Origin: a virus
Length of the DNA stretch: 20,027 nucleotides
Virus record (IMG/VR): IMGVR_UViG_3300030333_000409
Coordinates: 1 to 20,027 of that record
Strand: one strand, 5' to 3'
Positions 5,638-17,205 of the stretch are shown here, piece after piece (position 1 is the stretch's first letter; each line of letters starts with the position of its first letter). The position numbers and the translations under genes were made by a program. The notes below the pieces were generated by a model. The model was not told where the DNA came from and searched no databases. It saw only the letters and a list, made by a program, of their open reading frames with translations.

Positions 5638-6129
5638 TTAACCACAAATAAAATCAGTATTAAAGGCTATAACTGTCTTTTTACATCCTTTTTCTATAGG
5701 TGGAGAGCAATGAGGTAGAAATGCTGGAAAGCTAATGATATCTCCCTCTTCACAAATTTCTTCAAAATTTCTAAATTGTGTTGAATAACCTGCAGGGCAT
5801 TCTAAAAAGTAAACATTAGCATAATTAGTCTGTGGATGAGTATGCCAACTATGTTTGCCATTTTCACCATAAGTTTGAAACCAAAAGTTATCTATTTTAG
5901 CCTCCTGAACTTTGAACTCATCTACCATTTTATGTATGTGTGGGGTAACTGTTTCTATAAATAATTTTGCATATTCCCTGTGCATTTCTCGTGGCAGATT
6001 CCAGTCAGTGTGTATGATATTTTGGCCCTCGCTTCGCATGGGATTGTTAGGGATTTTATTTATTTGTTCTAAAAGTTTATCTTTTATCTCTGAGTGAGAT
6101 TTTACCTTTGTTTTAAAAATATAATTCAC
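5638..6129 (-). CDS. 2OG-Fe(II) oxygenase-like protein (PF13759-type)
   Basis: A 163-residue protein with a GTG start at 6129 that overlaps the preceding TAG stop (TAGTG). The double-stranded beta-helix core is visible: HSWHTHPQTNYANVYFLE (about 93-110) aligns by eye with the 'HxH...SGVYYL' iron site of the TIGR02466/PF13759 group, using H96 and H98. GDIISFPAFLPH (129-140) gives the second metal His, H140. KKTVIAFN (150-157) is the last strand, where relatives usually have an Arg for 2-oxoglutarate; here it is Lys. The likely activity is Fe(II)- and 2-oxoglutarate-dependent hydroxylation of an unknown substrate. It stands apart from the other oxygenases, between a small beta-rich protein and the internal virion genes. 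Loss of activity cannot be excluded because of the Lys substitution. Confidence 0.75.
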   Translation of the reverse strand: MNYIFKTKVKSHSEIKDKLLEQINKIPNNPMRSEGQNIIHTDWNLPREMHREYAKLFIETVTPHIHKMVDEFKVQEAKIDNFWFQTYGENGKHSWHTHPQTNYANVYFLECPAGYSTQFRNFEEICEEGDIISFPAFLPHCSPPIEKGCKKTVIAFNTDFICG

Positions 6130-6485: not shown

Positions 6486-6648
6486 TTAAAAACCAAGTCC
6501 TTCTTGTAGCTTCTTCTTGTGTATCTAGTGTGTATTGAGTATTAAGTTGCTGTATCATCTCTTCTAGTTGTCTAATAAGTTCAGCGGATTGTTGTGGATC
6601 ATACTCCGGTCTGGGATCTGGAAATCTCTGTAATACTAATTTTGCCAT
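6478..6648 (-). CDS. 56-residue conserved-looking small protein
   Basis: A short frame begins with ATG at 6648, overlapping the preceding stop by one base (TAATG), and ends with TGA at 6478-6480, inside the start region of the next gene. It fills what would otherwise be a 160-base hole in a tightly packed operon. It starts MAKLVLQRFPDPRPEYDPQQ, has an amphipathic helix with LIRQLEEMIQQLNTQYTL (about residues 24-41), and ends RRTWFLNG. Small proteins with this arrangement (basic start, a helix containing 'QLN', terminal 'WFL') are familiar to me next to the propeller-like tail gene of marine podophages. Function unknown; a small tail or connector component is plausible. Confidence 0.72.
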   Translation of the reverse strand: MAKLVLQRFPDPRPEYDPQQSAELIRQLEEMIQQLNTQYTLDTQEEATRRTWFLNG

Positions 6649-8477
6649 TATCTTCTACCATCTGGTTGAATATCAAATCTTTGTGTACCCAATCTCCATG
6701 CAGTCCCCGTGGTGTTAGATACTACGTTGACCGTAAACTCTCTACCTCTTCCACGTAAACTCACAAACTCTGTAGCATCAGTAAACGTTGCTGTTTTAAT
6801 TGTGCTTGTGCTAGTGTTAGGGTAATTTTTAAATTCGAGTTTTGCATTTAGGGTGCCCTCTTGATTTTGAACATCAGGTATTAATTTAGATACAAATAAT
6901 AAGTCATTTCCTTCTCCTAATTCAACGGAGCCTGATTTAACAAAAGCAGTCATAGCCTCACCGTCAGCATTATTACCTGTTTCATGTAAAAGTAATTTAG
7001 ATGCTCCCGCTGTTAAGCCAGATATAACCTCATTATTTGCCACAACATCATCAAAATACTCAGTTGCAACAGGATTATCAAAAACCTCTCTATCAATCCA
7101 TGTTGTTCTACTAAGAGTGCCTATCCACCATGTGCGCTCTAAATAATTATAAGCCACCACTGCATTAATTTGATCAGAGCCTGTCCTATTATAAAACCAC
7201 AATATTTCATTAAATTCACCATTATGTCCAACAAACGCATTTTCTGAACCAGTGACATTAATATTATCAAAAACAAATTGTTCTACAGTGCAAGGTAATT
7301 TTTTTACTGTACCATCAAATAGAAAGAATGAGTCTTGAGACATCCAATAAGAAACACCATTTAAGTCTATACCTGCGTGCTGTCCTATTATACCACAGTT
7401 CTGACCTAATTGTCTAAGACCAAAAGTAAAAGGAGGGCCAATAAATTGTAATGAATGTAAGGACGTGTCTGTCCATACAAGAATTTGACCTCTCGATCTT
7501 TCAGAGGCTACGATTCGTGATCCGTCAGCTATTCTTAAAGAACCAGCAGTGTTTTCTGCTGTAGGTTGATAAGTATTTATATCTTCCTGACTAGAAAATC
7601 TTATTAACAAATCGTCTTGTTTGCTTGGATCACCTATATCATTCTCTGTCCCCATAAAAATTAAATGTCTATCTGGAGTAGATACTAAACCAATTCTTGA
7701 GGCTGTTGGTGCGCCTGTTATCGCACTTGCTCTAGTTGATACTGAAGTAGAGGGATTCCATTCAAATGCGCCACCATTAAGAACCGTTGCAATTAATTTT
7801 TCACCAAAGTTATCTAAAGACCATTGTCTAGCTTCTAACGTAACATTAGAAGCAGTAGATGGTGTGCCCCAAGTACCTGAACTCCAAGTATCAGTGCCCC
7901 AACCAAATGCAGGTAATGAAAATTCTGGACCTACGTTAATTTGATATTTTGCGTTACCCGTTCCTCCACCACCAGATGTCGAGCCTGACGCTGCTGCAGT
8001 GGTTGTAACTGTATATGCATTATTATTTGCAACAGTTATGACTTCAAACTCTTTGTTCATGTCAAGTCCGTCTATGGTTGAAAAAGAGTCGAATGTTACA
8101 AAGTCTCCGACTTGTGCCCCGTGGCCTGTGTCTGTAACCACAACTGTGGTTGTTGCATTTGTTGTGAAAGGGTTGGATAGTGATGTGGTAGTTTTTCTTA
8201 ATGGGGTGATGTCATAGGCTCTACCCTCTTCAATAACATACAGTTTTCTATCAGTTCCGACAGCATCATATCTTGTGCCATCTAATGCTACCCAGGCGTG
8301 TTGATCCCGAGCAACACCGACTATTGTAGTGTTTATAAATTTCTCCCAACCTTTAATTTTTTGTGGCAAACCCTGAAAAAAACGCACATTATCGCCATCA
8401 GTCCACTTACCTTCACCTGTGTAATCGGTTACTTCTTTATTAATACCTGGTGCTGGTCTAAAATTTACTAGGGGCAT
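6648..8477 (-). CDS. Large beta-rich tail protein, probably propeller-like (P22 gp10 / T7 gp12-like role)
   Basis: A 609-residue protein with ATG at 8477. The N-terminus reads PLVNFRPAPGINKEVTDYTG and then NVRFFQGLPQKIKGWEKF, a 'few arginine, GWE' opening I recognise from marine podophage structural proteins. The body is rich in short beta strands and turns. It includes repeated blade-like pieces: WVALDGTRYDAVGTDRKLYV (about 62-81), RHLIFMGTENDIGDP, RGQILVWTDTSLHSLQFIGP, GVSYWMSQDSFFLFDGTVK and YNYLERTWWIGTLSRTTWI. Similar patterns occur in the beta-propeller tail hub/nozzle proteins (P22 gp10, T7 gp12). No enzyme motif is visible. Likely role: part of the short tail tube that closes the head after packaging. 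The fold assignment is inferred from strand pattern and context, not from a search. Confidence 0.78.
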   Translation of the reverse strand: MPLVNFRPAPGINKEVTDYTGEGKWTDGDNVRFFQGLPQKIKGWEKFINTTIVGVARDQHAWVALDGTRYDAVGTDRKLYVIEEGRAYDITPLRKTTTSLSNPFTTNATTTVVVTDTGHGAQVGDFVTFDSFSTIDGLDMNKEFEVITVANNNAYTVTTTAAASGSTSGGGGTGNAKYQINVGPEFSLPAFGWGTDTWSSGTWGTPSTASNVTLEARQWSLDNFGEKLIATVLNGGAFEWNPSTSVSTRASAITGAPTASRIGLVSTPDRHLIFMGTENDIGDPSKQDDLLIRFSSQEDINTYQPTAENTAGSLRIADGSRIVASERSRGQILVWTDTSLHSLQFIGPPFTFGLRQLGQNCGIIGQHAGIDLNGVSYWMSQDSFFLFDGTVKKLPCTVEQFVFDNINVTGSENAFVGHNGEFNEILWFYNRTGSDQINAVVAYNYLERTWWIGTLSRTTWIDREVFDNPVATEYFDDVVANNEVISGLTAGASKLLLHETGNNADGEAMTAFVKSGSVELGEGNDLLFVSKLIPDVQNQEGTLNAKLEFKNYPNTSTSTIKTATFTDATEFVSLRGRGREFTVNVVSNTTGTAWRLGTQRFDIQPDGRR

Positions 8478-8489
8478 TTAAAAAATATA

Positions 8490-9056
8490 CTACAATTCCT
8501 TGATTGGATCATTAGAAAAATTAAAAGCAACAGATATCCTATCATTCTTACAATCTGTAACCGTATGATATAAGTATGAGGGAAATAATACCAATTTGCC
8601 TTTTGTTTCATTAATTTGCTCATCATTAATAGTCTCAAATGGTTTTGTTTTACCTTCTATCAGTTCAGTTCTTGAAAAGATTAAGTTGCCCTCTCCTGGT
8701 TTAATTATTAAAACACCACAAAAATCTGCAAATCCATGGTTGTGCATTTTGGTAGAATCTCCCTTTTGATAAAAATTAACCCATGCCTCCTTTGTGTGCC
8801 AATTATTGTATCTCCAATTTTGGCTTTGTCCTATTTTTGGTAAAACATTTTGACATATGTATTGTGATAATTCTTGCAAATCTTGATATTGATTTAATCC
8901 GTCCCAACCTGTTGTCAGTGCATTGACATTATTTAAATCTCTTTTCCAATTATCTTTATCTATTACAACTTTTTCTTGCAATTTATTACAAAACTCAATG
9001 TCAATATTAGTGTGAAATATCTTGGTGCTAAACCAATTCTCTAATTTTATTTCCAT
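8490..9056 (-). CDS. 2OG-Fe(II) oxygenase (PF13759-type)
   Basis: A 188-residue protein, ATG at 9056. The metal site is clear: STKMHNHGFADFCGVLII gives H105 and H107 in the HxH form typical of this family. KLVLFPSYLYHTV (about 154-166) gives H164, and NDRISVAFNF (171-180) places R173 where 2-oxoglutarate is bound. This is a complete set for an Fe(II)/2OG dioxygenase of the TIGR02466/PF13759 group; members are common in marine phages but their substrates are unknown. The N-terminal third, with WFSTKIFHTNID near the start, also fits the family. It is the last gene of the enzyme block, 12 bases before the propeller-like tail gene and 6 bases after the previous oxygenase, so it is very likely co-transcribed with both. 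Confidence 0.87.
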   Translation of the reverse strand: MEIKLENWFSTKIFHTNIDIEFCNKLQEKVVIDKDNWKRDLNNVNALTTGWDGLNQYQDLQELSQYICQNVLPKIGQSQNWRYNNWHTKEAWVNFYQKGDSTKMHNHGFADFCGVLIIKPGEGNLIFSRTELIEGKTKPFETINDEQINETKGKLVLFPSYLYHTVTDCKNDRISVAFNFSNDPIKEL

Positions 9057-9062
9057 AAATTA

Positions 9063-9587
9063 TTATTTTAATAATTCTGTTTGAAAAGCTATTGTTACTC
9101 GCAAAAGAGAACTTAATCTTGTTGGTGCTACACCTCTATGTTTTAATGACCCATTAAATACTATTAAACGATCTGGTTTAAAAGAACATACGTTTGTGGC
9201 CTCTTTATTTTCATCATAAATAATAAACTCACCGCCCCACTCTGGATCCCAATGTGGAGCTAAACAATATAAAAAAGTAGGTAAGTTTTCATAATTATCC
9301 TCATGCATTGTGCCATCATATCCAGTAGGATGTATGTTTATAAACCACCTATAGATTCTTATTTTCTTTGTATCCATATGATTTTGATCAATTTTAGTTT
9401 TTAAGTCGTAAATTAATGGTAAGAAAAAATCAGTATTAGGAAGTAAAGTTGTGAAAGAATCCGCAGCTAATTGTCTTTCATGTGCTTTATTTTTAAGACA
9501 CATTTTTATTTCACCCTTATCAATATATTTGTCCCAAAAACCATTAATAAGATCAGGATTATTTAAAAAATTATCTACTTTATTCAT
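9063..9587 (-). CDS. 2OG-Fe(II) oxygenase, prolyl-4-hydroxylase-like
   Basis: A 174-residue protein, ATG at 9587, overlapping the glycosyltransferase stop by four bases (ATGA). It carries the canonical facial triad: DGTMHEDNYENLPTFLYCLA gives H95 and D97, then WGGEFIIYDE, and PDRLIVFNGSLKHRGVAP gives H150, with R163 in SSLLRVTIAFQ for 2-oxoglutarate binding. The strand order 'HxD...WGGEF...vFnGslkHrg...R.tiafq' is that of the P4Hc-type (PF13640-like) dioxygenases. The substrate is unknown and could be a protein side chain, a nucleobase or a sugar. It differs from the HxH-type oxygenase beside it, so the two are not a recent tandem duplication. Confidence 0.87.
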   Translation of the reverse strand: MNKVDNFLNNPDLINGFWDKYIDKGEIKMCLKNKAHERQLAADSFTTLLPNTDFFLPLIYDLKTKIDQNHMDTKKIRIYRWFINIHPTGYDGTMHEDNYENLPTFLYCLAPHWDPEWGGEFIIYDENKEATNVCSFKPDRLIVFNGSLKHRGVAPTRLSSLLRVTIAFQTELLK

Positions 9588-10399
9588 TTTTGAGGTTCTA
9601 CTAAAGCTCCTACATGACCTTTAAATGTTCTGTTACCAAAATGTGATAAAGGCATTGCTAGGTCAGCCCATATTTTACCTCCACACTCTTGCCATAATCT
9701 AGAAAAATAATAATCCTCTGAAAGATATCTTAATTGAGGTTTACCTTCTTTTGTTTTTGTTTCATATGGTCCAACAGCAAATAAATCGTAACAATTATCT
9801 GATTTATAATATCCACCATTTACTATTTGATCAGACTCATATTTTCTCTCTGGAAACTTTTTCATCATGGTTCTAAATACTTGTCTCTTAACTAACATCA
9901 TTCCCGTTGCTGCCTCTTGCACAGGAAAGAAACCCTGTTCTCCCTTTAAATTTGTAGGATCATCAAAATTAATATTGTATCCCAAAGCTCTAGCCTCTAT
10001 TTCATCATTAGATAGATCCGGGTGCTTTTCTAAAATATCTTTAATTTTTTCTAAATGTATATGTTTTCTTGGGTATATACCACATGCTACATCTTTGTCA
10101 GCACATAATAATCTTTCGACATTTTTATGCGTAAAACCTATATCAGCGTCAATAAATAAAAGATGCGTTGCTACAAAATCTTGTTGATCCATCATCATAG
10201 ATACAATCGTGTTTCTAGCTCTTGTTATTAAACTTTCGTTACCCATTGTTTGTATTCTTAAATGCACATTATTTGCCACTGACCATTGTTGTAATTCTAA
10301 TAATCCATGCAAAGTAGGTTCAGTAAGTAACCCTCCATACATAGGCATTCCTAAAAAAACTTTAAAATTTTTATCTTTTAATTCTTCTTGTTTTAACAT
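9584..10399 (-). CDS. GT-A fold glycosyltransferase
   Basis: A 271-residue protein, ATG at 10399, directly after the preceding stop (TAA ATG). The opening strand KVFLGMPMYGG and the segment SLITRARNTIVSMMM are typical of GT2/Anp1-like enzymes. THLLFIDADIGF holds the DxD-type metal/nucleotide-sugar motif at D84-A85-D86. Further on, ATGMMLVKRQVFRTM (about 164-178), LSEDYYFSRLWQECG with E228-D229 as the likely catalytic acidic pair, and MPLSHFGNRTFKGH (about 249-262) complete the pattern. It probably transfers a sugar from a nucleotide donor in the cytoplasm; no membrane segment is visible. The acceptor is unknown. It is surrounded by oxygenases that could make hydroxyl acceptors, which is inference from context. 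Confidence 0.86.
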   Translation of the reverse strand: MLKQEELKDKNFKVFLGMPMYGGLLTEPTLHGLLELQQWSVANNVHLRIQTMGNESLITRARNTIVSMMMDQQDFVATHLLFIDADIGFTHKNVERLLCADKDVACGIYPRKHIHLEKIKDILEKHPDLSNDEIEARALGYNINFDDPTNLKGEQGFFPVQEAATGMMLVKRQVFRTMMKKFPERKYESDQIVNGGYYKSDNCYDLFAVGPYETKTKEGKPQLRYLSEDYYFSRLWQECGGKIWADLAMPLSHFGNRTFKGHVGALVEPQK

Positions 10400-10951
10400 T
10401 TATATATACATACCTTTCCATTGATTACATTTTCTATAATTAAAAGCTAAAGTTATTCTTTGATTATCACTTTCATTAGCTGATACTCTATGCTCTACGG
10501 TGTCTGGAAACAAAACTATTTTGCCAAACTCTGGTTGCACAGATATTGTATCATGAAAATAAAACTGTGTTACCGCATCTGGTGAATCAGTTAAATATAT
10601 AATTCCACATAGCGCTCTATGTATGGGGTCCATATGCACGTGATACTCTTGAAAAAACTCTTTGTGGTATATATTAAACCACGATTTTTCAATAAACCCC
10701 TCATAATATTTACCAGACATTGACATATAATTCTGCACGTGAGCTAAAATATTTAAATGTAAACCTTGTAATTTTAAATCATTAAGTATATTGAAACTTA
10801 AACTATCACTTGTAATACACTTACAAGCATACGGATTATCTGTAATTTTATCCTTCATCTCTTCAATATATTTTATTGCATTATTGCAAACTTCTTTATC
10901 TAGAAAGTTGTAATAAATGTTATTTATTTCAGGTCTTTGTATAAATGACAT
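10400..10951 (-). CDS. 2OG-Fe(II) oxygenase (PF13759-type)
   Basis: A 183-residue protein, ATG at 10951, one base after the methyltransferase stop. SWFNIYHKEFFQEYHVHMDP has the HxH iron ligands H104 and H106, followed by the strand ALCGIIYLTDSP. GKIVLFPDTVEHRVSANES gives H154, and NQRITLAFNYR supplies R165 for 2-oxoglutarate. All core residues are present, so an active dioxygenase is likely. It belongs to the same broad group as the genes at 8490 and 5638, but only the motif residues look alike, so it diverged long ago or came from elsewhere. Substrate unknown. Confidence 0.86.
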   Translation of the reverse strand: MSFIQRPEINNIYYNFLDKEVCNNAIKYIEEMKDKITDNPYACKCITSDSLSFNILNDLKLQGLHLNILAHVQNYMSMSGKYYEGFIEKSWFNIYHKEFFQEYHVHMDPIHRALCGIIYLTDSPDAVTQFYFHDTISVQPEFGKIVLFPDTVEHRVSANESDNQRITLAFNYRKCNQWKGMYI

Positions 10952-10952
10952 T

Positions 10953-11537
10953 CTAAATTTTAAATAAAAAGGTGTTTAGGTACCTATGTATTTTATTTTT
11001 GTTATTATAATATTGTTTAATAGAAGCAATAGGTTTCATAACTTGCTCTATTGCATTTGCATCGTGCCCCATAAAAATACCACCTTTTTTTATTTTTGGA
11101 TAATAAGCATGAGCTTCATTGTAACTTTGTTCTTTAGTCATCATTGCATCAAAAAATATAAAATCTAATGAAAGATCAGATATACTTTTTACTGCATCTA
11201 ATGAGTCCTTTTTAATTATTTCAACATTATCTGACATGCCAGAATATTTAACCTTCAGCCTTGTCAAAAACTCACATAGTTCTATATCCATTCTATTTAC
11301 GCTATAAGCAGGTTTACCATCAGGTTTAGTTTTCAGCCAATCATCATAAGGTTTCCAACTATCTATGAGATATAACTTTTGAATTGAACAATTATGTAGA
11401 ATAGTCAAGCTACTTTCACCTTTGTCTACACCTAACTCTAAACCCACTAAATTCTCACCAAGCATATTAATGGCTTGTATTAATGGTCCTATGTCTGCAG
11501 AGTCACAATCTCTGTAATCACAAGTAATGTCAGTCAT
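10953..11537 (-). CDS. Class I SAM-dependent methyltransferase (Methyltransf_24-like)
   Basis: A 194-residue protein, ATG at 11537 overlapping the previous stop (TAATG). Motif I is VGLELGVDKGESSL (31-44), the glycine-rich loop for S-adenosylmethionine. KLYLIDSW (54-61) gives the acidic residue D59 that usually binds the ribose. LDFIFFDA (124-131) and KKGGIFMGHD (150-159) correspond to the following strands and resemble the PF13578 group, which includes cephalosporin-hydroxylase-like and sugar O-methyltransferases. There is no NPPY-type motif of amino-DNA methyltransferases and no PC motif of cytosine-C5 enzymes, so O-methylation of a small molecule or sugar is more likely than DNA methylation. 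The neighbouring glycosyltransferase and oxygenases could supply a hydroxyl or sugar acceptor. Confidence 0.84.
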   Translation of the reverse strand: MTDITCDYRDCDSADIGPLIQAINMLGENLVGLELGVDKGESSLTILHNCSIQKLYLIDSWKPYDDWLKTKPDGKPAYSVNRMDIELCEFLTRLKVKYSGMSDNVEIIKKDSLDAVKSISDLSLDFIFFDAMMTKEQSYNEAHAYYPKIKKGGIFMGHDANAIEQVMKPIASIKQYYNNKNKIHRYLNTFLFKI

Positions 11538-12145
11538 TAAGAATTTTTAACTTTTTTCTCTCCCAAACATTTTCTCTTATCAAATTTCCATTCTTTGAAT
11601 TCGCCCTCTTGATCTACATAATGTAAAAATACAGTTATAAAATGATCGTGTTTACAATATTCTCTCCAGTGTATTTTATCCATGCCTTTAAATATTAACG
11701 CATTGTTTGGAACCATAGGGAATTTATAATCTATTTTGTATCTATTATAGTCACCTTCATTGGAGTAATACTTGTAATCTGAGTTATTATCCTCTTCTCC
11801 TACAAATATCTCATAAGGCTCCTGAGCAGGATCTGCACCCAAACATAAAGCAACGGTGTATTCACAAGAGGGTCTATCTTTATGTATTTTTAAATCAGAT
11901 CCTTTATCATATATTCTAAAGTAAGAGTATGTTGGAAATAATTTTTTACCTACATTTTGCTCTACAACTGGTGTGCTTGCCTCCATAAGAGTCTCCATAT
12001 ATGTATCAGAATAAACTCCTATAAGTGAGTTAGCCTGATCATCTATTTCAAAAGATTTAGTATTTGAAAATTTTATAAGTGAATAAGAGTAAGACAAATT
12101 TAATATTTGTTTAGGTAAGAACTCAGTAATAAATATTGGCTCCAT
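11537..12145 (-). CDS. 2OG-Fe(II) oxygenase-like protein with HWRE motif
   Basis: I place the start at the ATG at 12145, which overlaps the previous stop by one base (TGATG), the coupling seen throughout this operon, with AGGA about 11 bases upstream. An in-frame ATG at 12157 would add four residues (MGHL) but has no well-placed ribosome binding site. The 202-residue product has FPTYSYFRIYDKGSDLKIHK, whose HKD (H88, D90) is the HxD iron site. It then has a beta strand TVALCLGADP and NNALIFKGMDKIHWREY with the second metal His at H159. The usual Arg two strands later is absent; the segment reads HDHFITVFLHYVDQEGEF. I recognise this 'HKDRPSCE...kHWRE...FLHYVD' layout from marine phage hypothetical oxygenases. 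Substrate unknown; the 2-oxoglutarate contact may be made by R161 or another residue. Confidence 0.78.
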   Translation of the reverse strand: MEPIFITEFLPKQILNLSYSYSLIKFSNTKSFEIDDQANSLIGVYSDTYMETLMEASTPVVEQNVGKKLFPTYSYFRIYDKGSDLKIHKDRPSCEYTVALCLGADPAQEPYEIFVGEEDNNSDYKYYSNEGDYNRYKIDYKFPMVPNNALIFKGMDKIHWREYCKHDHFITVFLHYVDQEGEFKEWKFDKRKCLGEKKVKNS

Positions 12146-12699
12146 CAAATGGCCCATCCTATTAAGGCGTATCTAGTGCCACTTGTTACTTTATTTACCT
12201 GATGAGGAAATATAAAATTTGACGGAAACATAATACAGTCTCCTTCATTTTGTGGATATTGTATTTCGTTGCCATCTATATTAAACATAAACTCTCCACC
12301 TTGAAAATCATTGTTTAAGCAAACAGAAATAGATATAGCTCTATTTTGAGTTTTAGGGCCAAAGTCAGTATGATATTTGTATCCTGCTTCATATTCATTA
12401 GATACATATTTTAAAATGTCTAACTGTGATATTTCTTCAACCTTACTGTATTTGTGTTTATCAGAGTAAGTTTTTAATGCTGAAAAAAATTTACTTAGAA
12501 TATAATTATAGAGAACTGTTTCGCCAAATGTTTGAGGCTGTATAGATTTTGTCGTGCAGTTTCTAATATTTTTTTTTACTGATCCTTCTGAATTTGTGAC
12601 AATACCTGCATCTTCAAATCCATAATCATGGTATTTAATAATTTTTTTACAAATATTTGAGGGAATTAGTTTTCTAATTTCTACAATATAATTTTGCAC
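12145..12699 (-). CDS. 2OG-Fe(II) oxygenase, prolyl-4-hydroxylase-like
   Basis: A 184-residue protein with a GTG start at 12699, three bases after the previous stop; no earlier in-frame ATG is available. The core is textbook: AGYKYHTDFGP gives H110 and D112, NRAISISVCLNNDFQGGEF the central strands, GDCIMFPSNFIFPHQVNKV gives H166, and SGTRYALIGWAI places R176 for 2-oxoglutarate. This is the P4Hc/PF13640 architecture and the clearest oxygenase of the set. It opens the enzyme block, directly following the tail-fibre accessory genes. P4Hc-like proteins can hydroxylate proline or other protein side chains, so a tail or virion protein substrate is conceivable, but nothing in the sequence shows this. 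Confidence 0.88.
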   Translation of the reverse strand: MQNYIVEIRKLIPSNICKKIIKYHDYGFEDAGIVTNSEGSVKKNIRNCTTKSIQPQTFGETVLYNYILSKFFSALKTYSDKHKYSKVEEISQLDILKYVSNEYEAGYKYHTDFGPKTQNRAISISVCLNNDFQGGEFMFNIDGNEIQYPQNEGDCIMFPSNFIFPHQVNKVTSGTRYALIGWAI

Positions 12700-12702
12700 T
12701 TG

Positions 12703-13155
12703 TTAGTAAGTTATACTATGTCCTGAGAGATAATTATCTCTTGCTGTAACACCTGCATTTGTGCCCGCTGTGACTGCAGCTGAGTCATCATCAGTGTTTG
12801 CACTTGCATCGGCAGCGTAAGCAGTGTTGTAGGCTTCAGTATATTTATCCTCTGCTTCTGCTCTAATCACAACATTATTTACCCATGAAGGTAACTCAGT
12901 TATAGATGTATTATCTCTACTGTCAGTGTATTCTATGTGACCTTTATTATTGACTGCATCCCACTGTAATGCATGTATAGAGGCATCTATTTCAGTATGT
13001 GACCTTAAATTGTAGCAAACTTTTGAATCAAAGTAGACATCAGATTCAGTATTGCCTGTGCCCTTTGCTGGACCATTACCATCGAGTTGTCCATCAGCAT
13101 CAAATATAATAGTTAATCTTGTATTTACCGTTGTATTATTTACTGTTGTTGCCAT
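12703..13155 (-). CDS. Acidic Ala/Asp/Thr-rich hypothetical protein, 150 aa
   Basis: ATG at 13155, inside the 3' end of the preceding gene (20-base overlap). The N-terminal part has beta-prone strands (NNTTVNTRLTIIFDADGQ, CYNLRSHTEIDASIHALQW, GHIEYTDSRDNTSITELPSW). The C-terminal 50 residues are low complexity and rich in Ala, Asp and Thr (NTAYAADASANTDDDSAAVT). No family recognised. The location two genes after the tail fibre suggests a tail-associated or fibre-assembly protein; the acidic composition would suit a chaperone-like role, but that is guesswork. Confidence 0.7.
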   Translation of the reverse strand: MATTVNNTTVNTRLTIIFDADGQLDGNGPAKGTGNTESDVYFDSKVCYNLRSHTEIDASIHALQWDAVNNKGHIEYTDSRDNTSITELPSWVNNVVIRAEAEDKYTEAYNTAYAADASANTDDDSAAVTAGTNAGVTARDNYLSGHSITY

Positions 13156-13600
13156 TTTTCTTTACCTTTTTTGTCGAAGCTTTCTTAGTCTTCTTTGTAA
13201 TTTTTATATTATTATTACTTAATTGTCCAATCGTTTTATCCACTTGAGTTTTGTCACCATCCATGACAGCCCTTTGTTGTTTACTTAACAAATTAAAAAT
13301 AGACGTGGTATTCCTCATTAAATTAGACGCTGTATCACTTTTTTGCAAAAGGCCCTCCATAGCTCTATTAGAGTCAACCATCTCATTTCTAAAGGATTCT
13401 GTTGCTGCTTGAACTTTCATGGTTTGTCTTGAATTTTCTACTAAAAGTAAAGGTATCCAAGCTATGGAACATCCCCACTCTTGAACGTCTAATCCAGTTT
13501 GTGGGTTTTTGCCCTGAAGCATATTATACCAGATGCATTTATGTTTAATACATTTCTTTTTTAAAAGGGGGCACGTGCCGTCTGGGTCAAATATAGGCAC
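13136..13600 (-). CDS. Four-cysteine protein with Lys-rich tail, 154 aa
   Basis: GTG start at 13600, overlapping the tail-fibre stop TAG by one base (TAGTG), which supports this start. The N-terminal 45 residues contain C10, C17, C22 and C44 (CPLLKKKCIKHKCIWY ... EWGCSIAW), a spacing that could bind zinc or an iron-sulfur cluster. The middle (about 55-120) is helical (ENSRQTMKVQAATESFRNEM) and the last 20 residues are Lys-rich (KITKKTKKASTKKVKKNG), a possible nucleic-acid contact. I recall proteins with the same 'CPLLKkkCikHkC' start beside tail fibre genes in marine phages, without known function. Confidence 0.74.
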   Translation of the reverse strand: MPIFDPDGTCPLLKKKCIKHKCIWYNMLQGKNPQTGLDVQEWGCSIAWIPLLLVENSRQTMKVQAATESFRNEMVDSNRAMEGLLQKSDTASNLMRNTTSIFNLLSKQQRAVMDGDKTQVDKTIGQLSNNNIKITKKTKKASTKKVKKNGNNSK

Positions 13601-14643
13601 TAATCTTTAGCAGCAATAATCACGTTAGCGTATTTTACATCCGCCGCTGGAACTGTTACAGAAACGTCAGCAGTTGCGCCAGATAAAGATCCTGAAAATG
13701 GGTGAGTGTGAGATCCACCACCACCAGCTGATCCACTAGAAATACCACTAGGTGAGTTACCACCACTTCTGATAAGAGGTTTACCTGATTCCTGTGGTCT
13801 TACGTTGTGAGTTGTAAGAGGGTGCGTATGAGATGCAATAGTTGGAGTTGATAATGTTGTATCACCAACTGTACCGGAAAGTGAACCTGAAACAGGAGCG
13901 TCACTATCTGCAGCTGTCTTATCTGTAGTTGCTAAGAAAGAAGAAAAATAAGCTGTGGTACCACCAGTGCCTCCGCCTGAGCCTGTAACCACTGACATTA
14001 CTGCCTCATTTAAAGCAGCAGTTGTATCTTGTGTCCAACCCGTTGGTGCAGATGCTTGATAAAAAACTTGTTTTGTCCCTGAAGGAAAAGGTTCAACACC
14101 TGTTAAATTTGCACCACTACCTGTATATGTAGTTGCAGATACTGTGCCATTACTTCTTAAAATAATATTACCACCACCTGCAGTTAAATCTTTACCTGCT
14201 GCTATTGTTACTGCGCCTAACTTATCTACTGCATTATAAATTTTAAAATTTGATGATCCTTCACAATAAACATGAGAATAAGCACCTTGTGCAATTGCTA
14301 ATCCATTAGCGGTGTGTCCTGTTGCGGCTATAGTTAAAGTTTGTGATCCTGAAGTATTGTTGAAGAAAACATACTCACTCTCAGTAGCGGGTATGAAAAC
14401 AACAATGTCTCCTGTCAAAGCTCCTGTAAGTTCAATAACCCTATTAGCTGATTCTGTGCTAGGATCTGCATCTCCTGTTGATAATGTTATATTGGCTGAT
14501 CCTGCTACTGATTTTGCAAGGTAGCCACCACCAAAAGCGTCAACAACATCTAAATTATTATTTGTTCTTGTACCCCAGGTATTGGCATTAGCCCCTGTTT
14601 CCATCTTCTCTAGCTTGTATCTACTTGTAAATGTACTTGCCAT
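13600..14643 (-). CDS. Tail fibre protein with HxH metal-site motifs
   Basis: A 347-residue protein, ATG at 14643, with a good ribosome binding site (AGAGGT about 6 bases upstream). It is rich in Gly, Ser, Thr and Ala with few charged residues, typical of fibrous receptor-binding proteins. The N-terminus (TSRYKLEKMETGANANTWGT, residues 6-25) is the kind of short 'NTWG' attachment motif found in marine phage fibres. Residues 186-204 (FPSGTKQVFYQASAPTGWT) resemble the start of a phage tail-collar-like domain. Two SHTHP motifs (271-275 and 311-315), flanked by near-repeated GSLSGT/GSLSGA strands and Gly-rich loops, resemble the HxH iron-binding repeats in the tip of T4 gp37. It probably forms a trimer and determines host recognition at the virion surface. 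Confidence 0.85.
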   Translation of the reverse strand: MASTFTSRYKLEKMETGANANTWGTRTNNNLDVVDAFGGGYLAKSVAGSANITLSTGDADPSTESANRVIELTGALTGDIVVFIPATESEYVFFNNTSGSQTLTIAATGHTANGLAIAQGAYSHVYCEGSSNFKIYNAVDKLGAVTIAAGKDLTAGGGNIILRSNGTVSATTYTGSGANLTGVEPFPSGTKQVFYQASAPTGWTQDTTAALNEAVMSVVTGSGGGTGGTTAYFSSFLATTDKTAADSDAPVSGSLSGTVGDTTLSTPTIASHTHPLTTHNVRPQESGKPLIRSGGNSPSGISSGSAGGGGSHTHPFSGSLSGATADVSVTVPAADVKYANVIIAAKD

Positions 14644-14681: not shown

Positions 14682-16214
14682 CTACAACAGTTTTGTATGT
14701 ATCTCATCTCCCATTACTAATACATCTGCTTCTGACTTGTCAAACATTATTTTAGCTTGTTTTTTTGTGCCTATAATAGGTTTACCAGGTAAATTCATTG
14801 ATGTGTTGATTAATACAGAACTCCCTGTGATTTGTTTGAATTCCTTTAATAAATTTAAAAATGTCGGATTTTTATTATCTACAGTTTGTATACGACATGT
14901 ACCATCTGCATGTGTTATAGTAGCATATTTCCAAGGATCTTTCACTTTAGCCTGATACAACATCCAAGGACTTTCATATTTTAAATCAAAATAATTTTCA
15001 TAATCGTCAACAGGCACACTAGCTCCGTAGGGTCTAAACCATATTCTTTTTTTTATTTTATCATTTAAAATTTCTTTCGCATTTGGAACCGTAGGATCAA
15101 AAAGTATAGATCTATAACCAAGCGCTCTTGGACCTAACTCTCCCCAACCTTGTCCCCACATTACAATTTTTCCCTCATCAAGATATTTTGCAACTTTTTT
15201 TATTGTGCTATGTTTTGCATATCCAAAGTTTTCGTCATGTTGTTTAATATCAACAATTGATTGTTTTAATCTAAACCTTTTGTAAAACTCACCACCTAGA
15301 AGAAAGATAACAGCACCAATAGATAATCCCTCATCACCACAGTGAGGAGTAGGAGTATAATTAGGAAAATCCTCTTTTAACATTGTGTTTAATATTATGT
15401 TATGCCCAACACCACCTGATACACCAATTTTATCATGCTTGTTAAAATTATTACTAAGATGTCTTCTTAATTTTTTATACCAATAGTAATGTAATGATGT
15501 AACGAAAGAGTTAGATATAAATGATTCATCTTTACTATTAATCTTTTTCTTAAAGTTTGACAAATTTTCAAAGGTATTAGGAACATGTACAAGTTTATTT
15601 TTTTTATTTTTATATCTCTTGTATGTAGGCATATCTAGAAGATGTGAATAGTCTTTACCAAAAGCATGTAAAGCCATTGTATGTCCTGCAAAATCAAGGT
15701 TTTCTCTAAACTCATTGTACCTTTCCACATATAAATCATCATCTTTTTTTGTTGTAAACCATTGCATCCATAATTTGTCTAAGTCTCTACCAAGACATGA
15801 ATGTTGATAAGCATTAAGTTTTAATTTTGGTTGGTTTTTTTTGTAAATAGTTACACAATCAAAGCTACTTCCAACACTATCTACTATTAAAGAATTATAA
15901 TTTGATGTGCCCATTATGGAATGATGATGACATAAATGATGATCTACGAATATAGGTGTTAAATATTTGTATGGAAACTCTACACCATAAATACCACCTG
16001 CATCAACTATGGCTAAATTAGTTATATCTCCAATGTCATAACCTAAGTGATTAAGATATTTAACCCACGTGCTTAAATCATCATGAGCTTGACCTTTATA
16101 ACCTGTAATTCTTTCGAATTTTAAATATTTAAGAGTATTTGTATCATGATCGTAAACAGAAATATTACCATCGTGACAGTAAGTGTGAACACCTACGGTT
16201 AGTTTATCTTTCAC
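14682..16214 (-). CDS. NodU/TobZ-family carbamoyltransferase
   Basis: A 510-residue protein with a GTG start at 16214, one base after the upstream stop. It carries the family signature from end to end: HDGN at 14-17, the metal-binding His cluster HHLCHHHS at 92-99, SGGVGHNIILN at 266-276 (Kae1-like nucleotide-binding fold), CGDEGLSIGA at 292-301, GWGELGPRALGYRS at 356-369, RPYGASV at 394-400, HADGTCR at 435-441 and LINTSMNLPGKPI at 468-480. Family members use carbamoyl phosphate and ATP to make carbamoyl-AMP and then carbamoylate a hydroxyl group, for example on Nod factor, tobramycin or cephalosporin precursors. It is slightly shorter than bacterial NodU proteins of about 560 residues but appears complete. 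Such genes are known in cyanophages. It lies between a tail repeat protein and the tail fibre, which suggests late expression; its acceptor is unknown. Confidence 0.93.
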   Translation of the reverse strand: MKDKLTVGVHTYCHDGNISVYDHDTNTLKYLKFERITGYKGQAHDDLSTWVKYLNHLGYDIGDITNLAIVDAGGIYGVEFPYKYLTPIFVDHHLCHHHSIMGTSNYNSLIVDSVGSSFDCVTIYKKNQPKLKLNAYQHSCLGRDLDKLWMQWFTTKKDDDLYVERYNEFRENLDFAGHTMALHAFGKDYSHLLDMPTYKRYKNKKNKLVHVPNTFENLSNFKKKINSKDESFISNSFVTSLHYYWYKKLRRHLSNNFNKHDKIGVSGGVGHNIILNTMLKEDFPNYTPTPHCGDEGLSIGAVIFLLGGEFYKRFRLKQSIVDIKQHDENFGYAKHSTIKKVAKYLDEGKIVMWGQGWGELGPRALGYRSILFDPTVPNAKEILNDKIKKRIWFRPYGASVPVDDYENYFDLKYESPWMLYQAKVKDPWKYATITHADGTCRIQTVDNKNPTFLNLLKEFKQITGSSVLINTSMNLPGKPIIGTKKQAKIMFDKSEADVLVMGDEIHTKLL

Positions 16215-16215
16215 T

Positions 16216-17205
16216 TTAAGCTGCGTTTACCTCTGTCCATGTATTACTTGCACCCGTCACCACGTTGGCCCAAGGCGTAGCAAAAGGTTTACCTGAAACT
16301 ATTGATAAATCAAGTCCAGTCACGTTTACTGTGGCTCCCGCTAAAGGAGTTACTGTGCCCTCTGCGAAGCTAAGAGCGACTGTTGATACGTTTACTATTA
16401 CTCCTGTGCCTGTCTCTACAGTTTCTGTGCCTAATGAGAAAGCGCTAGATAAACTACCGAGTGTTACTAAAGCGTCCGCAGTTGGGGTCACACTACCTAA
16501 TGCTGAAGCCATTGTAACGGCAGTAGGATCTACTTGAGTAAAGATATCGATTACTGGGGTGCCAATAGCAAAATCTAATTGATCTGAAGGCGCAACAACC
16601 GCAACACTTCCCTCACCTGAAACAGTTGCTCCTGATAAGGCTGCACCGATTGTCAATGCTGTTGGATTTACTAATGCTGAAGCCTCTGATATTGTTACAG
16701 AGTTTAAAGAAGATGTCATTGACAATCCTGTTGGACTTACAATTACACCTGTTCCCACTTCTTGAGTAGTGGTGCCTAATGCAGTAGACATTGATACGCT
16801 ACTGACGTTAGTAATAAATTCTATATTTTCATTCCAAGCAAAAGAACCCCATGTCGATCTTCCCCAACCTGCATCAACAGTACCTGATCCTGTTTCATCA
16901 CCAACGGCAAAAGAAACAGATAAACTACCTAGGACGACACCTGCGCCCTCTTCGATAGCTAAAGCTCCTGATAATTGTGTTTGAAACGAAAGACCTGTAG
17001 GTGAAACAACGTGTTCCGGTTCTGCTATAGGGGTGCCTAAAGCAGCTGTAAGTGTAACTGGAGAAGGTGGAACTGATACATCAGCAGTAGCTGAGGCTGT
17101 ACCTAATGCGGATGTTACTGAAACACCCGTTACTGATACGGTAATTGAACTTTGTTGGCCCCATGCGCCTTCGCCCCAATTATTTTCACCCCAAGCGTCT
17201 GCCAT
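16216..17205 (-). CDS. Repeat-containing tail/virion protein with Trp-Gly motifs
   Basis: ATG at 17205 behind a very good ribosome binding site (AGGAGGT). The 329-residue protein is almost without Cys, Lys or Arg and is built from about twelve degenerate repeats of 20-25 residues. Each has a form like 'V-s-p-t-G-l-s-h-x-x-s-L-G-x-x', for example VSVTGVSVTSALGTASATAD, IVSPTGLSMTSSLNSVT and QVDPTAVTMASALGSVT. Two Trp-Gly clusters, WGENNWGEGAWGQ at about 5-17 and WGRSTWGSFAW at about 114-124, separate the N-terminus and the repeat blocks. Such a layout suggests a beta-solenoid or beta-sandwich fibre. Related 'WGrstWGsg.W' repeat proteins are familiar to me from marine phage structural clusters, where their function is unknown. 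Likely part of the tail or virion surface. Confidence 0.78.
   Translation of the reverse strand: MADAWGENNWGEGAWGQQSSITVSVTGVSVTSALGTASATADVSVPPSPVTLTAALGTPIAEPEHVVSPTGLSFQTQLSGALAIEEGAGVVLGSLSVSFAVGDETGSGTVDAGWGRSTWGSFAWNENIEFITNVSSVSMSTALGTTTQEVGTGVIVSPTGLSMTSSLNSVTISEASALVNPTALTIGAALSGATVSGEGSVAVVAPSDQLDFAIGTPVIDIFTQVDPTAVTMASALGSVTPTADALVTLGSLSSAFSLGTETVETGTGVIVNVSTVALSFAEGTVTPLAGATVNVTGLDLSIVSGKPFATPWANVVTGASNTWTEVNAA

What the first reader, a model, noticed from the sequence alone, without database searches (positions are those of the whole stretch)
8490..12699. Enzyme block in the tail operon: oxygenases, glycosyltransferase and methyltransferase
Between the tail-fibre accessory genes and the propeller-like tail gene lie, in order, a P4Hc-type oxygenase, an HWRE-type oxygenase, a methyltransferase, an HxH-type oxygenase, a GT-A glycosyltransferase, a P4Hc-type oxygenase and an HxH-type oxygenase, all on one strand with 1- to 13-base junctions. 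Seen directly: gene order, motifs and coupling. Inference: they form a decoration pathway in which hydroxyl groups are installed and then glycosylated or methylated. Targets could be the tail fibre, virion proteins, DNA bases or host surface glycans. Individual enzymes of these families are known in marine phages; I do not know of a described pathway of this composition.
Basis: partly seen in the sequence, partly recalled or inferred. Interest (0 to 1): 0.72.

Follow-up and report, generated by a model that had tools for sequence, protein, structure and literature searches.

The report
Swappable enzyme cassette beside phage fibre
Viruses related to those of the ocean bacterium SAR11 carry, next to the tail-fibre gene, a constant pair of hydroxylase-type genes, a constant sugar-transferase gene and a frequently swapped set of other decorating enzymes, and the hydroxylase pair is inherited together with the fibre, so it probably modifies the fibre protein.

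Summary
In detail: seven same-strand, tightly coupled genes, namely four 2OG-Fe(II) oxygenases, an HWRE protein that folding shows to be a fifth, a class-I methyltransferase and a GT-A glycosyltransferase. Two related genes were missed: a NodU/CmcH-type carbamoyltransferase (14682-16214) and a sixth oxygenase (5638-6129).

"One seven-step pathway" does not hold. In 88 related loci the slot is a mosaic (46 arrangements among 59 non-redundant loci). All seven genes recur together in only three near-identical contigs. Two parts are constant: the glycosyltransferase (54/54 propeller-seeded loci) and a coupled or fused pair OX1-OX2 (50/54). The methyltransferase, OX4, the carbamoyltransferase and others come and go independently; relatives also carry sulfotransferases and a tryptophan halogenase.

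OX1 and OX2 track the fibre's C-terminal domain (Mantel rho 0.82 and 0.74), not the glycosyltransferase (0.13, 0.08). The fused pair also follows a fibre gene in an unrelated phage, and cellular homologues lie beside lasso-cyclase-like genes. The likeliest role is hydroxylation of the fibre module; tailoring of virion proteins by the other enzymes is inference.

OX2 is the "ferrochelatase" reported as a pelagiphage auxiliary metabolic gene (phrog_2954). That label is very probably wrong: its model is a prolyl-hydroxylase-like 2OG fold.

The parts
13600..14643 (-). FIBRE: tail fibre; conserved N-terminal part, variable C-terminal part with His-rich 'SHTHP' motifs resembling those of T4-type fibre tips (the resemblance is from memory, untested)
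   Evidence: phrog_12796 tail fiber protein 3e-7, phrog_31104 2e-21; median identity 0.69 N-terminal, 0.23 C-terminal among relatives; no PDB sequence match of note
13136..13600 (-). c13136: fibre accessory protein with four invariant Cys, found only with one fibre type
   Evidence: 54/88 slots, always with c12703; alignment A4; no Pfam or PHROG hit
12703..13155 (-). c12703: fibre accessory or chaperone-like protein; other loci carry a Phage_tail_APC chaperone or a glycine-rich adhesin in this place
   Evidence: no match in phage records
12145..12699 (-). OX1: P4Hc-type 2OG-Fe(II) oxygenase, first half of the constant pair
   Evidence: PF13640 1e-13; HxD...H in 149/150; tracks the fibre
11537..12157 (-). 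OX2: HWRE 2OG-Fe(II) oxygenase (PHROG 'ferrochelatase'), second half of the pair; likely start 12145 (TGATG overlap with OX1)
   Evidence: AlphaFold model pLDDT 92, VIA-align Z 15.3 to a prolyl hydroxylase, Foldseek P4H 4e-7; H92/D94/H163 invariant 114/114
10953..11537 (-). MT: class-I SAM methyltransferase (Methyltransf_24), a rare swappable gene
   Evidence: PF13578 2e-12; 3/88 slots, 1/54 propeller-seeded slots; elsewhere downstream of the propeller gene
10400..10951 (-). OX3: HxH...H oxygenase (PF13759), swappable
9584..10399 (-). GT: GT-A glycosyltransferase, the constant core gene of the slot
   Evidence: 88/88 slots and 54/54 propeller-seeded slots; model pLDDT 76, VIA Z 15.0 to an LH3 GT-type domain, 14.1 STIV A197, 13.0 Mnn9; Anp1 weak in 13/44 members
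9063..9587 (-). OX4: P4Hc-type oxygenase, swappable
   Evidence: PF13640 3e-7; 10 carriers need 8 changes on the propeller tree
8490..9056 (-). OX5: HxH...H oxygenase, swappable
   Evidence: PF13759 1e-10; absent or relocated in most relatives
6648..8477 (-). PROP: conserved virion structural or stabilisation protein that closes the slot
   Evidence: phrog_3287 6e-84; 81-99% identical in the 80 best relatives
5638..6129 (-).
   Evidence: phrog_81 6e-23
14682..16214 (-). CARB: NodU/CmcH-type carbamoyltransferase just upstream of FIBRE; in relatives also inside the slot or downstream of PROP
   Evidence: PF16861 3e-50, PF02543 2e-9; phrog_1601 3e-106; positions

Best explanation
This is a hypervariable tailoring locus in the late tail operon of a pelagiphage-like virus. 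It has three layers. (1) A constant pair of 2OG-Fe(II) oxygenases, OX1 and OX2, made from overlapping genes or as one fused protein, travels with the tail-fibre module (FIBRE, its accessory proteins, OX1, OX2) and most likely hydroxylates side chains of the fibre or its accessory proteins as they are made. (2) A constant GT-A glycosyltransferase belongs to the conserved backbone and most likely glycosylates a virion (tail) protein, possibly through hydroxyls set by oxygenases. (3) A swappable set of further oxygenases, methyltransferases, carbamoyltransferases and, in relatives, sulfotransferases and a tryptophan halogenase alters the same surface further, so that phages differ in the chemistry as well as the sequence of what they present to hosts. 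Shown here: gene content, fold of OX2, GT-A fold, intact metal sites, coupling and fusion of the pair, its co-inheritance with the fibre, mosaicism of the rest. Inferred: that the pair's substrate is the fibre module; that GT and the swappable enzymes act on virion proteins; any order of steps; the benefit to the phage.
For: Location in the tail operon. OX1 and OX2 distances follow FIBRE (Mantel rho 0.78 and 0.71, its C-terminal part 0.82 and 0.74; p 0.002-0.003, the floor of the permutations used) but not GT (0.13, 0.08) or PROP (0.10, 0.08). Within one fibre type the link to FIBRE remains after controlling for the two genes between (partial r 0.43 for OX2, p 0.002; 0.32 for OX1, p 0.012), whereas c12703 loses its link to FIBRE once OX1 and OX2 are controlled (0.09, p 0.21). 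Each fibre-accessory type has its own OX1/OX2 alleles: OX2 identity 0.62 within and 0.34 between types, GT 0.82 and 0.80. The pair is fused in 7 pelagiphage ORFs and directly adjacent in 73/79 OX2 genes of the slots; in more distant phages 64 of 70 OX2 genes not at a contig edge have another 2OG gene directly upstream, mostly overlapping it. A Betaproteobacteria-MAG contig of phage type has glycine-rich fibre gene, f47-like gene (E 1e-17), OX2-OX1 fusion (44% identical), then holin- and endolysin-like genes. Cellular OX2 homologues have an OX1-like gene within 4 kb in 12/27 loci; in two of them the pair lies beside a lasso-cyclase-like Asn synthase (NF033535 1e-77 and 6.5e-137), one with a sulfotransferase-like, an HprK-related and a PqqD-like ORF. 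A 2OG enzyme hydroxylating a lasso precursor is established (CanE, PMC9266682). OX2's nearest folds are prolyl hydroxylases. Virion glycosylation by phage-encoded glycosyltransferases is known in mycobacteriophages (cited in PMC12363180).
Against: No mass spectrometry; no substrate residue identified. Adjacency alone can cause co-inheritance. In the 12 loci where OX2 abuts GT the difference is clear for OX1 (0.66 FIBRE, 0.08 GT) but small for OX2 (0.38, 0.28). The content of the swappable intervals does not track the fibre: OX2-GT interval rho 0.20, GT-PROP -0.01, PROP-u5345 0.07, so nothing ties these enzymes to the fibre beyond location. GT relatives (about 30% identity) lie beside replication genes in several T4-like phages. 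Lasso-like context is seen in only 2-3 of 27 cellular loci and both cyclase scores are below NCBI's cut-offs. The GT model has pLDDT 76 only.
Confidence: 0.5

Rival explanations
1. Host-envelope modification: GT, carbamoyl-, methyl- and sulfotransferases and oxygenases change the host's LPS or surface glycans during infection, for example to block co-infection or re-adsorption to debris. The genes lie near the fibre because receptor and fibre co-vary.
For: Proposed for the glycosyltransferases in the host-recognition cluster of pelagimyophages (PMC7029224). NodU-type carbamoyltransferases, methyltransferases and sulfotransferases classically decorate surface or signal glycans (established knowledge). 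GT structural neighbours include Mnn9 and mannosylglycerate synthase.
Against: Genes sit in the tail operon coupled to structural genes, presumably expressed late, when a new surface has little time to act (inference). OX1-OX2 is fused or adjacent to fibre genes in unrelated phages, and cellular homologues can lie beside peptide-cyclase-like genes. No sugar-nucleotide synthesis or lipid-carrier genes were recognised in the window.
Confidence: 0.17
2. Hitch-hiking only: the fibre-GT-PROP region is a recombination hot spot that collects unrelated cargo genes. OX1-OX2 follow the fibre through linkage, and the enzymes have separate, unrelated substrates.
For: 46 arrangements among 59 loci; near-maximal numbers of changes for swappable genes (OX4 10 carriers/8 changes, f16 18/15, f39 7/7, CARB 4/4). 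Swappable content does not track the fibre. Low GC of the block, 0.29-0.31 against 0.37-0.42 in much of the flanks.
Against: Constancy of GT and of the OX1-OX2 pair inside the hot spot; partial correlations that skip the intervening genes; the same fibre-f47-fusion order in a distant phage; the chemistry is consistently of the tailoring kind.
Confidence: 0.18
3. DNA hypermodification: GT glycosylates a hydroxylated base made by the oxygenases; methyl or carbamoyl groups are added later.
For: GT homologues (about 30% identity) lie beside gp45 (sliding clamp) or gp46 in phiM12, Cr30, DLP6, OC and RHph_I1_18, much as T4 alpha-gt lies near gp46/47 (from memory). Some HTVC023P-type phages carry thymidine hypermodification genes elsewhere in the genome (PMC9599517).
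Against: No thymidylate-synthase-type hydroxymethylase (PF00303) in 13 relatives, most of them fragments, with working controls. MT is Methyltransf_24, not a DNA C5-methylase. Cultured pelagiphages carry the GT homologue in the tail operon. OX1 and OX2 track the fibre.
Confidence: 0.08
4. Metabolic help: oxygenases and 'ferrochelatase' act as auxiliary metabolic genes on 2-oxoglutarate, nitrogen or haem metabolism of the host.
For: Suggested in the literature: 2OG-NtcA control in cyanophages (PMC3037559); the ferrochelatase plus oxygenase pair in pelagiphages (PMC9599517, PMC11561400).
Against: OX2 is a 2OG-oxygenase fold, not a ferrochelatase (no ferrochelatase Pfam hit in 57 members). Many small, diverse single-domain oxygenases per phage fit distinct substrates better than 2OG removal (inference).
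Confidence: 0.07

Closest known systems
Metaviromic islands / host-recognition clusters of marine phages (PMC3909814; PMC7029224)
   Same: Hypervariable region around the fibre carrying Fe(II)-dependent oxygenases or glycosyltransferases; Mizuno et al. list the oxygenases under 'Host recognition'.
   Different: Those papers give no roles to the oxygenases. Here a constant OX1-OX2 pair tracking the fibre, a constant GT and a swappable remainder are separated.
2OG oxygenase plus 'ferrochelatase' partner genes of HTVC023P-type pelagiphages (PMC9599517; PMC11561400, phrog61 and phrog2954)
   Same: The same gene families and the same adjacency in the same phage group.
   Different: They were read as auxiliary metabolic genes; the 'ferrochelatase' is here a second 2OG oxygenase, and the pair goes with the fibre.
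Virion glycosylation of mycobacteriophages (Freeman et al. 2023, as cited in PMC12363180)
   Same: Phage-encoded glycosyltransferases that decorate virion proteins.
   Different: There shown by experiment; here no product is known, and oxygenases, not glycosyltransferases, dominate the locus.
Collagen lysyl hydroxylation and glycosylation (LH3, ColGalT1; mimivirus R699)
   Same: Oxygenase plus GT-A logic; the GT model aligns best with LH3 (Z 15.0) and also with R699 (13.3) and ColGalT1 (12.4).
   Different: Sequence identity 12-14%; the LH3 match is to residues 293-519; STIV A197 (14.1) and Mnn9 (13.0) score similarly; no collagen repeats were noted in FIBRE.
2OG hydroxylases of RiPP clusters (CanE of canucin, PMC9266682)
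   Same: 2OG hydroxylation of a ribosomal peptide; cellular OX2/OX1 homologues lie beside lasso-cyclase-like genes.
   Different: CanE works as a single oxygenase with lasso partners; the phage pair has no peptide precursor or cyclase and a fibre gene instead. Homology of CanE with OX1/OX2 was not tested.

Membership tests
2OG-Fe(II) oxygenase superfamily (OX1, OX3, OX4, OX5, OX6) | Profile match over the double-stranded beta-helix core | tested here: met
   PF13640 or PF13759 above gathering cut-off for OX1, OX3, OX4, OX5; OX6 just below (25.3 of 27 bits) but phrog_81 6e-23
2OG-Fe(II) oxygenase superfamily (OX1, OX3, OX4, OX5, OX6) | HxD/E...H facial triad | tested here: inconclusive
   Met for OX1 (149/150) and OX4 (22/22); OX3, OX5 and OX6 have an invariant HxH...H instead (176 members), so the carboxylate is replaced by His
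2OG-Fe(II) oxygenase superfamily (OX2) | Double-stranded beta-helix fold | tested here: met
   Model pLDDT 92; P. putida P4H 4e-7; VIA Z 15.3, rmsd 3.1, 166 aligned residues with prolyl hydroxylase 6ey1
2OG-Fe(II) oxygenase superfamily (OX2) | HxD...H triad | tested here: met
   H92, D94, H163 in 114/114
2OG-Fe(II) oxygenase superfamily (OX2) | 2OG-dependent turnover | not testable with these tools
   needs a biochemical assay; the residue that binds 2OG was not identified
Ferrochelatase (PHROG label of OX2) | Ferrochelatase profile and alpha/beta fold | tested here: not met
   No ferrochelatase Pfam hit at E 1 in 57 members; model is a beta-helix oxygenase fold
GT-A glycosyltransferase (GT) | GT-A fold with DxD | tested here: met
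   Conserved D84-A-D86; Z 11-15 to many GT-A structures, model pLDDT 76
GT-A glycosyltransferase (GT) | Membership in the Anp1 family (GT62) | tested here: inconclusive
   Pfam Anp1 hit in 13/44 members, best E 0.007
NodU/CmcH carbamoyltransferase (CARB) | Both N- and C-terminal domains | tested here: met
   PF02543 2e-9 and PF16861 3e-50, both above cut-off
Phage host-recognition island | Hypervariable gene content next to the fibre between conserved genes | tested here: met
   46 arrangements among 59 loci; GT and PROP constant
Virion protein glycosylation system | Glycan on virion proteins that depends on the phage GT | not testable with these tools
   needs mass spectrometry
DNA hypermodification system | Thymidylate-synthase-type nucleotide hydroxymethylase (PF00303) in the genome | tested here: inconclusive
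   Absent in 13 related records (PF00303 controls positive), but most records are fragments
DNA hypermodification system | TET/JBP oxygenase in the genome | tested here: inconclusive
   No match, but the positive controls did not ring either

The most novel reading that the evidence does not exclude
Abundant marine phages run a combinatorial protein-tailoring system on their receptor-binding tail parts: a dedicated dual hydroxylase goes with each fibre type, and swappable hydroxylases, methyl-, carbamoyl- and sulfotransferases, a halogenase and a constant glycosyltransferase create surface chemistries that sequence alone does not show.
Probability: 0.3. Interest if true: 0.85.

Novelty: new variant of a known kind. 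Interest (0 to 1): 0.6.

Why it matters
[quoted passage not shown] The co-inheritance of OX1-OX2 with the fibre gives a concrete, testable substrate and suggests that phages may vary their receptor-binding chemistry after translation. It also corrects a reported auxiliary metabolic gene: the 'ferrochelatase' (phrog_2954) used in pelagiphage and seasonal virome studies is very probably a 2OG oxygenase, so haem-based readings of it should be revisited.

Tried and rejected
Megablast of the whole window against phage records: no match. The window is its whole IMG/VR record, so no wider genome could be read. c12703 has no match in phage records and neither accessory protein has a Pfam or PHROG hit. 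OX2 and GT profiles against PDB sequences gave only chance hits, so folds were predicted. FIBRE against PDB sequences gave only weak antibody-chain matches, judged chance. TET/JBP search: controls failed, not used as evidence. Swappable interval content against fibre distance: little or no correlation, so I do not claim that those enzymes follow the fibre. Promoter and terminator scan: no more sites than shuffles. Rejected: ferrochelatase for OX2; one seven-gene pathway; PHROG names 'DNA endonuclease (V)' for phrog_274 and phrog_2297 matches, which here are 2OG oxygenases by Pfam. A Foldseek ranking of LH3 first was not taken as proof of a hydroxylysine glycosyltransferase, because other GT-A enzymes score nearly as well.


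Full report
What is there. The window is a complete 20,027-base IMG/VR record with no near relative in the phage collection. Its genes read on the - strand and encode late structural proteins. The nearest cultured relatives by the 'propeller' gene are Phage DSL-LC04 and pelagiphages HTVC027P and HTVC023P, at about 40-44% identity. The seven genes of the finding exist as described. A carbamoyltransferase (14682-16214) and a sixth oxygenase (5638-6129) belong to the same set.

Related loci. Two scans of viral contigs, one seeded with the propeller protein and one with the glycosyltransferase, gave 146 loci. In 88 the slot from FIBRE to PROP is complete. GT is present in all 88, but half of the search was seeded with GT; in the 54 slots seeded with PROP alone it is also 54/54, and OX1 plus OX2, or their fusion, occur in 50/54. 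The methyltransferase occurs in 3/88 and OX4 in 13/88. The full set of seven recurs only in L002, L082 and L083, which are 94-100% identical to the window in these genes. L061 shows the mosaic directly: OX1, OX2, OX3 and OX4 at 87-94% identity, no methyltransferase, and a diverged OX5-like gene in a new place. Among 59 non-redundant loci there are 46 arrangements. On a tree of the PROP protein the swappable genes change almost as often as they occur, whereas OX1 and OX2 (51 carriers) need 5 changes. In relatives the same operon also holds sulfotransferases, a tryptophan halogenase, other methyltransferases and JmjC/cupin-like proteins.

The constant pair. OX2 has no Pfam match of its own and is called 'ferrochelatase' in PHROGs. 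Its model (pLDDT 92) is a 2OG-oxygenase fold, closest to prolyl hydroxylases, with H92, D94 and H163 invariant in 114 sequences. OX2 follows OX1 directly in 73 of 79 cases. Seven pelagiphage ORFs fuse the two, OX2-like part first. In pelagimyophages and other distant phages, 64 of 70 OX2 genes not at a contig edge lie directly behind another 2OG gene, mostly overlapping it. Wittmers et al. 2022 (PMC9599517) already noted that each ferrochelatase gene has an oxygenase neighbour.

Co-inheritance with the fibre. Distances between OX1 or OX2 proteins rank with distances between fibres (rho 0.78, 0.71; C-terminal part 0.82, 0.74) and not with GT (0.13, 0.08) or PROP (0.10, 0.08). Within one fibre type the link survives control for the two genes between fibre and OX1. 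Four fibre-accessory types occur: c13136 plus c12703; a Phage_tail_APC chaperone; f27, mostly with a glycine-rich adhesin; f47. Each has its own OX1/OX2 alleles. Limits: physical linkage contributes; the accessory proteins are short and their distances noisy; and where OX2 abuts GT the contrast is clear only for OX1.

Independent contexts. A contig in a Betaproteobacteria MAG, of phage type, has a glycine-rich fibre gene, an f47-like gene, the fused pair (44% identical) and holin- and endolysin-like genes in a row (the last two read from sequence). In bacterial genomes 12 of 27 OX2 homologues have an OX1-like gene within 4 kb. In Methylomonas fluvii and a Mucilaginibacter strain the pair lies beside a lasso-cyclase-like Asn synthase; in Methylomonas sulfotransferase-like, HprK-related and PqqD-like ORFs are close by. 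Both cyclase scores are below NCBI's cut-off, so the clusters are called lasso-like only. CanE shows that 2OG enzymes hydroxylate lasso precursors (PMC9266682). Together these point to ribosomally made polypeptides as substrates of the pair.

The glycosyltransferase. The model (pLDDT 76) is a GT-A fold, with LH3, STIV A197, mimivirus R699, Mnn9 and ColGalT1 as best matches. The LH3 match is suggestive for a hydroxylysine route but is not well separated from the others. GT homologues lie in the tail operon of HTVC023P and HTVC027P and beside fibre genes in ACG-2014f, but beside replication genes in several T4-like phages. The DNA rival therefore stays open at low weight; PF00303 was absent in 13 relatives.

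Verdict. The seven-step pathway is replaced by a three-layer picture: a fibre-linked dual oxygenase, a constant GT, and swappable tailoring enzymes. Hydroxylation of the fibre module by OX1-OX2 is the best-supported function, at about 0.5. Action of the remaining enzymes on virion proteins is inference from location. The general phenomenon (oxygenases in marine host-recognition islands) is known; the pair, its tie to the fibre and the correction of the ferrochelatase label were not found in the papers that could be searched here, which do not include most subscription journals.

Noticed in passing
window 11537-12157; phrog_2954 and phrog_3531: The 'ferrochelatase' label used for this family in PHROGs, RefSeq phage records and two papers on pelagiphages and seasonal viromes is very probably wrong; the family is a 2OG oxygenase.
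   Followed up: yes
window 10400-10951, 8490-9056, 5638-6129: The PF13759-type oxygenases have an invariant HxH...H motif (176 members), that is three His in place of the usual HxD/E...H, which is unusual for 2OG enzymes.
   Followed up: partly
L137:13105-14595 and L044:5657-6418: A tryptophan halogenase (PF04820 3e-102) and a sulfotransferase (PF13469 7e-11) lie in the downstream variable interval of related phages.
   Followed up: partly
L254:1910-8489 and L251:1206-5137: Bacterial OX2 plus OX1 homologues lie next to lasso-cyclase-like Asn synthases; in L254 also sulfotransferase-like, HprK-related and PqqD-like ORFs, possibly an undescribed kind of peptide cluster.
   Followed up: partly
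L158, L159, L160, L161, L163: Homologues of the GT (phrog_1574, function unknown) lie beside the sliding-clamp or gp46 genes in T4-like phages of alphaproteobacteria and Stenotrophomonas, possibly as DNA glycosyltransferases.
   Followed up: no
phrog_274 and phrog_2297 (window 9063-9587, 10400-10951, 12145-12699): PHROG names 'DNA endonuclease V' and 'DNA endonuclease' are attached to families that match 2OG oxygenases here.
   Followed up: no
window 16216-17205: A repeat-rich 329-aa protein with no PHROG match sits at a fixed place just upstream of the carbamoyltransferase/fibre and is 33-82% identical in most relatives.
   Followed up: no
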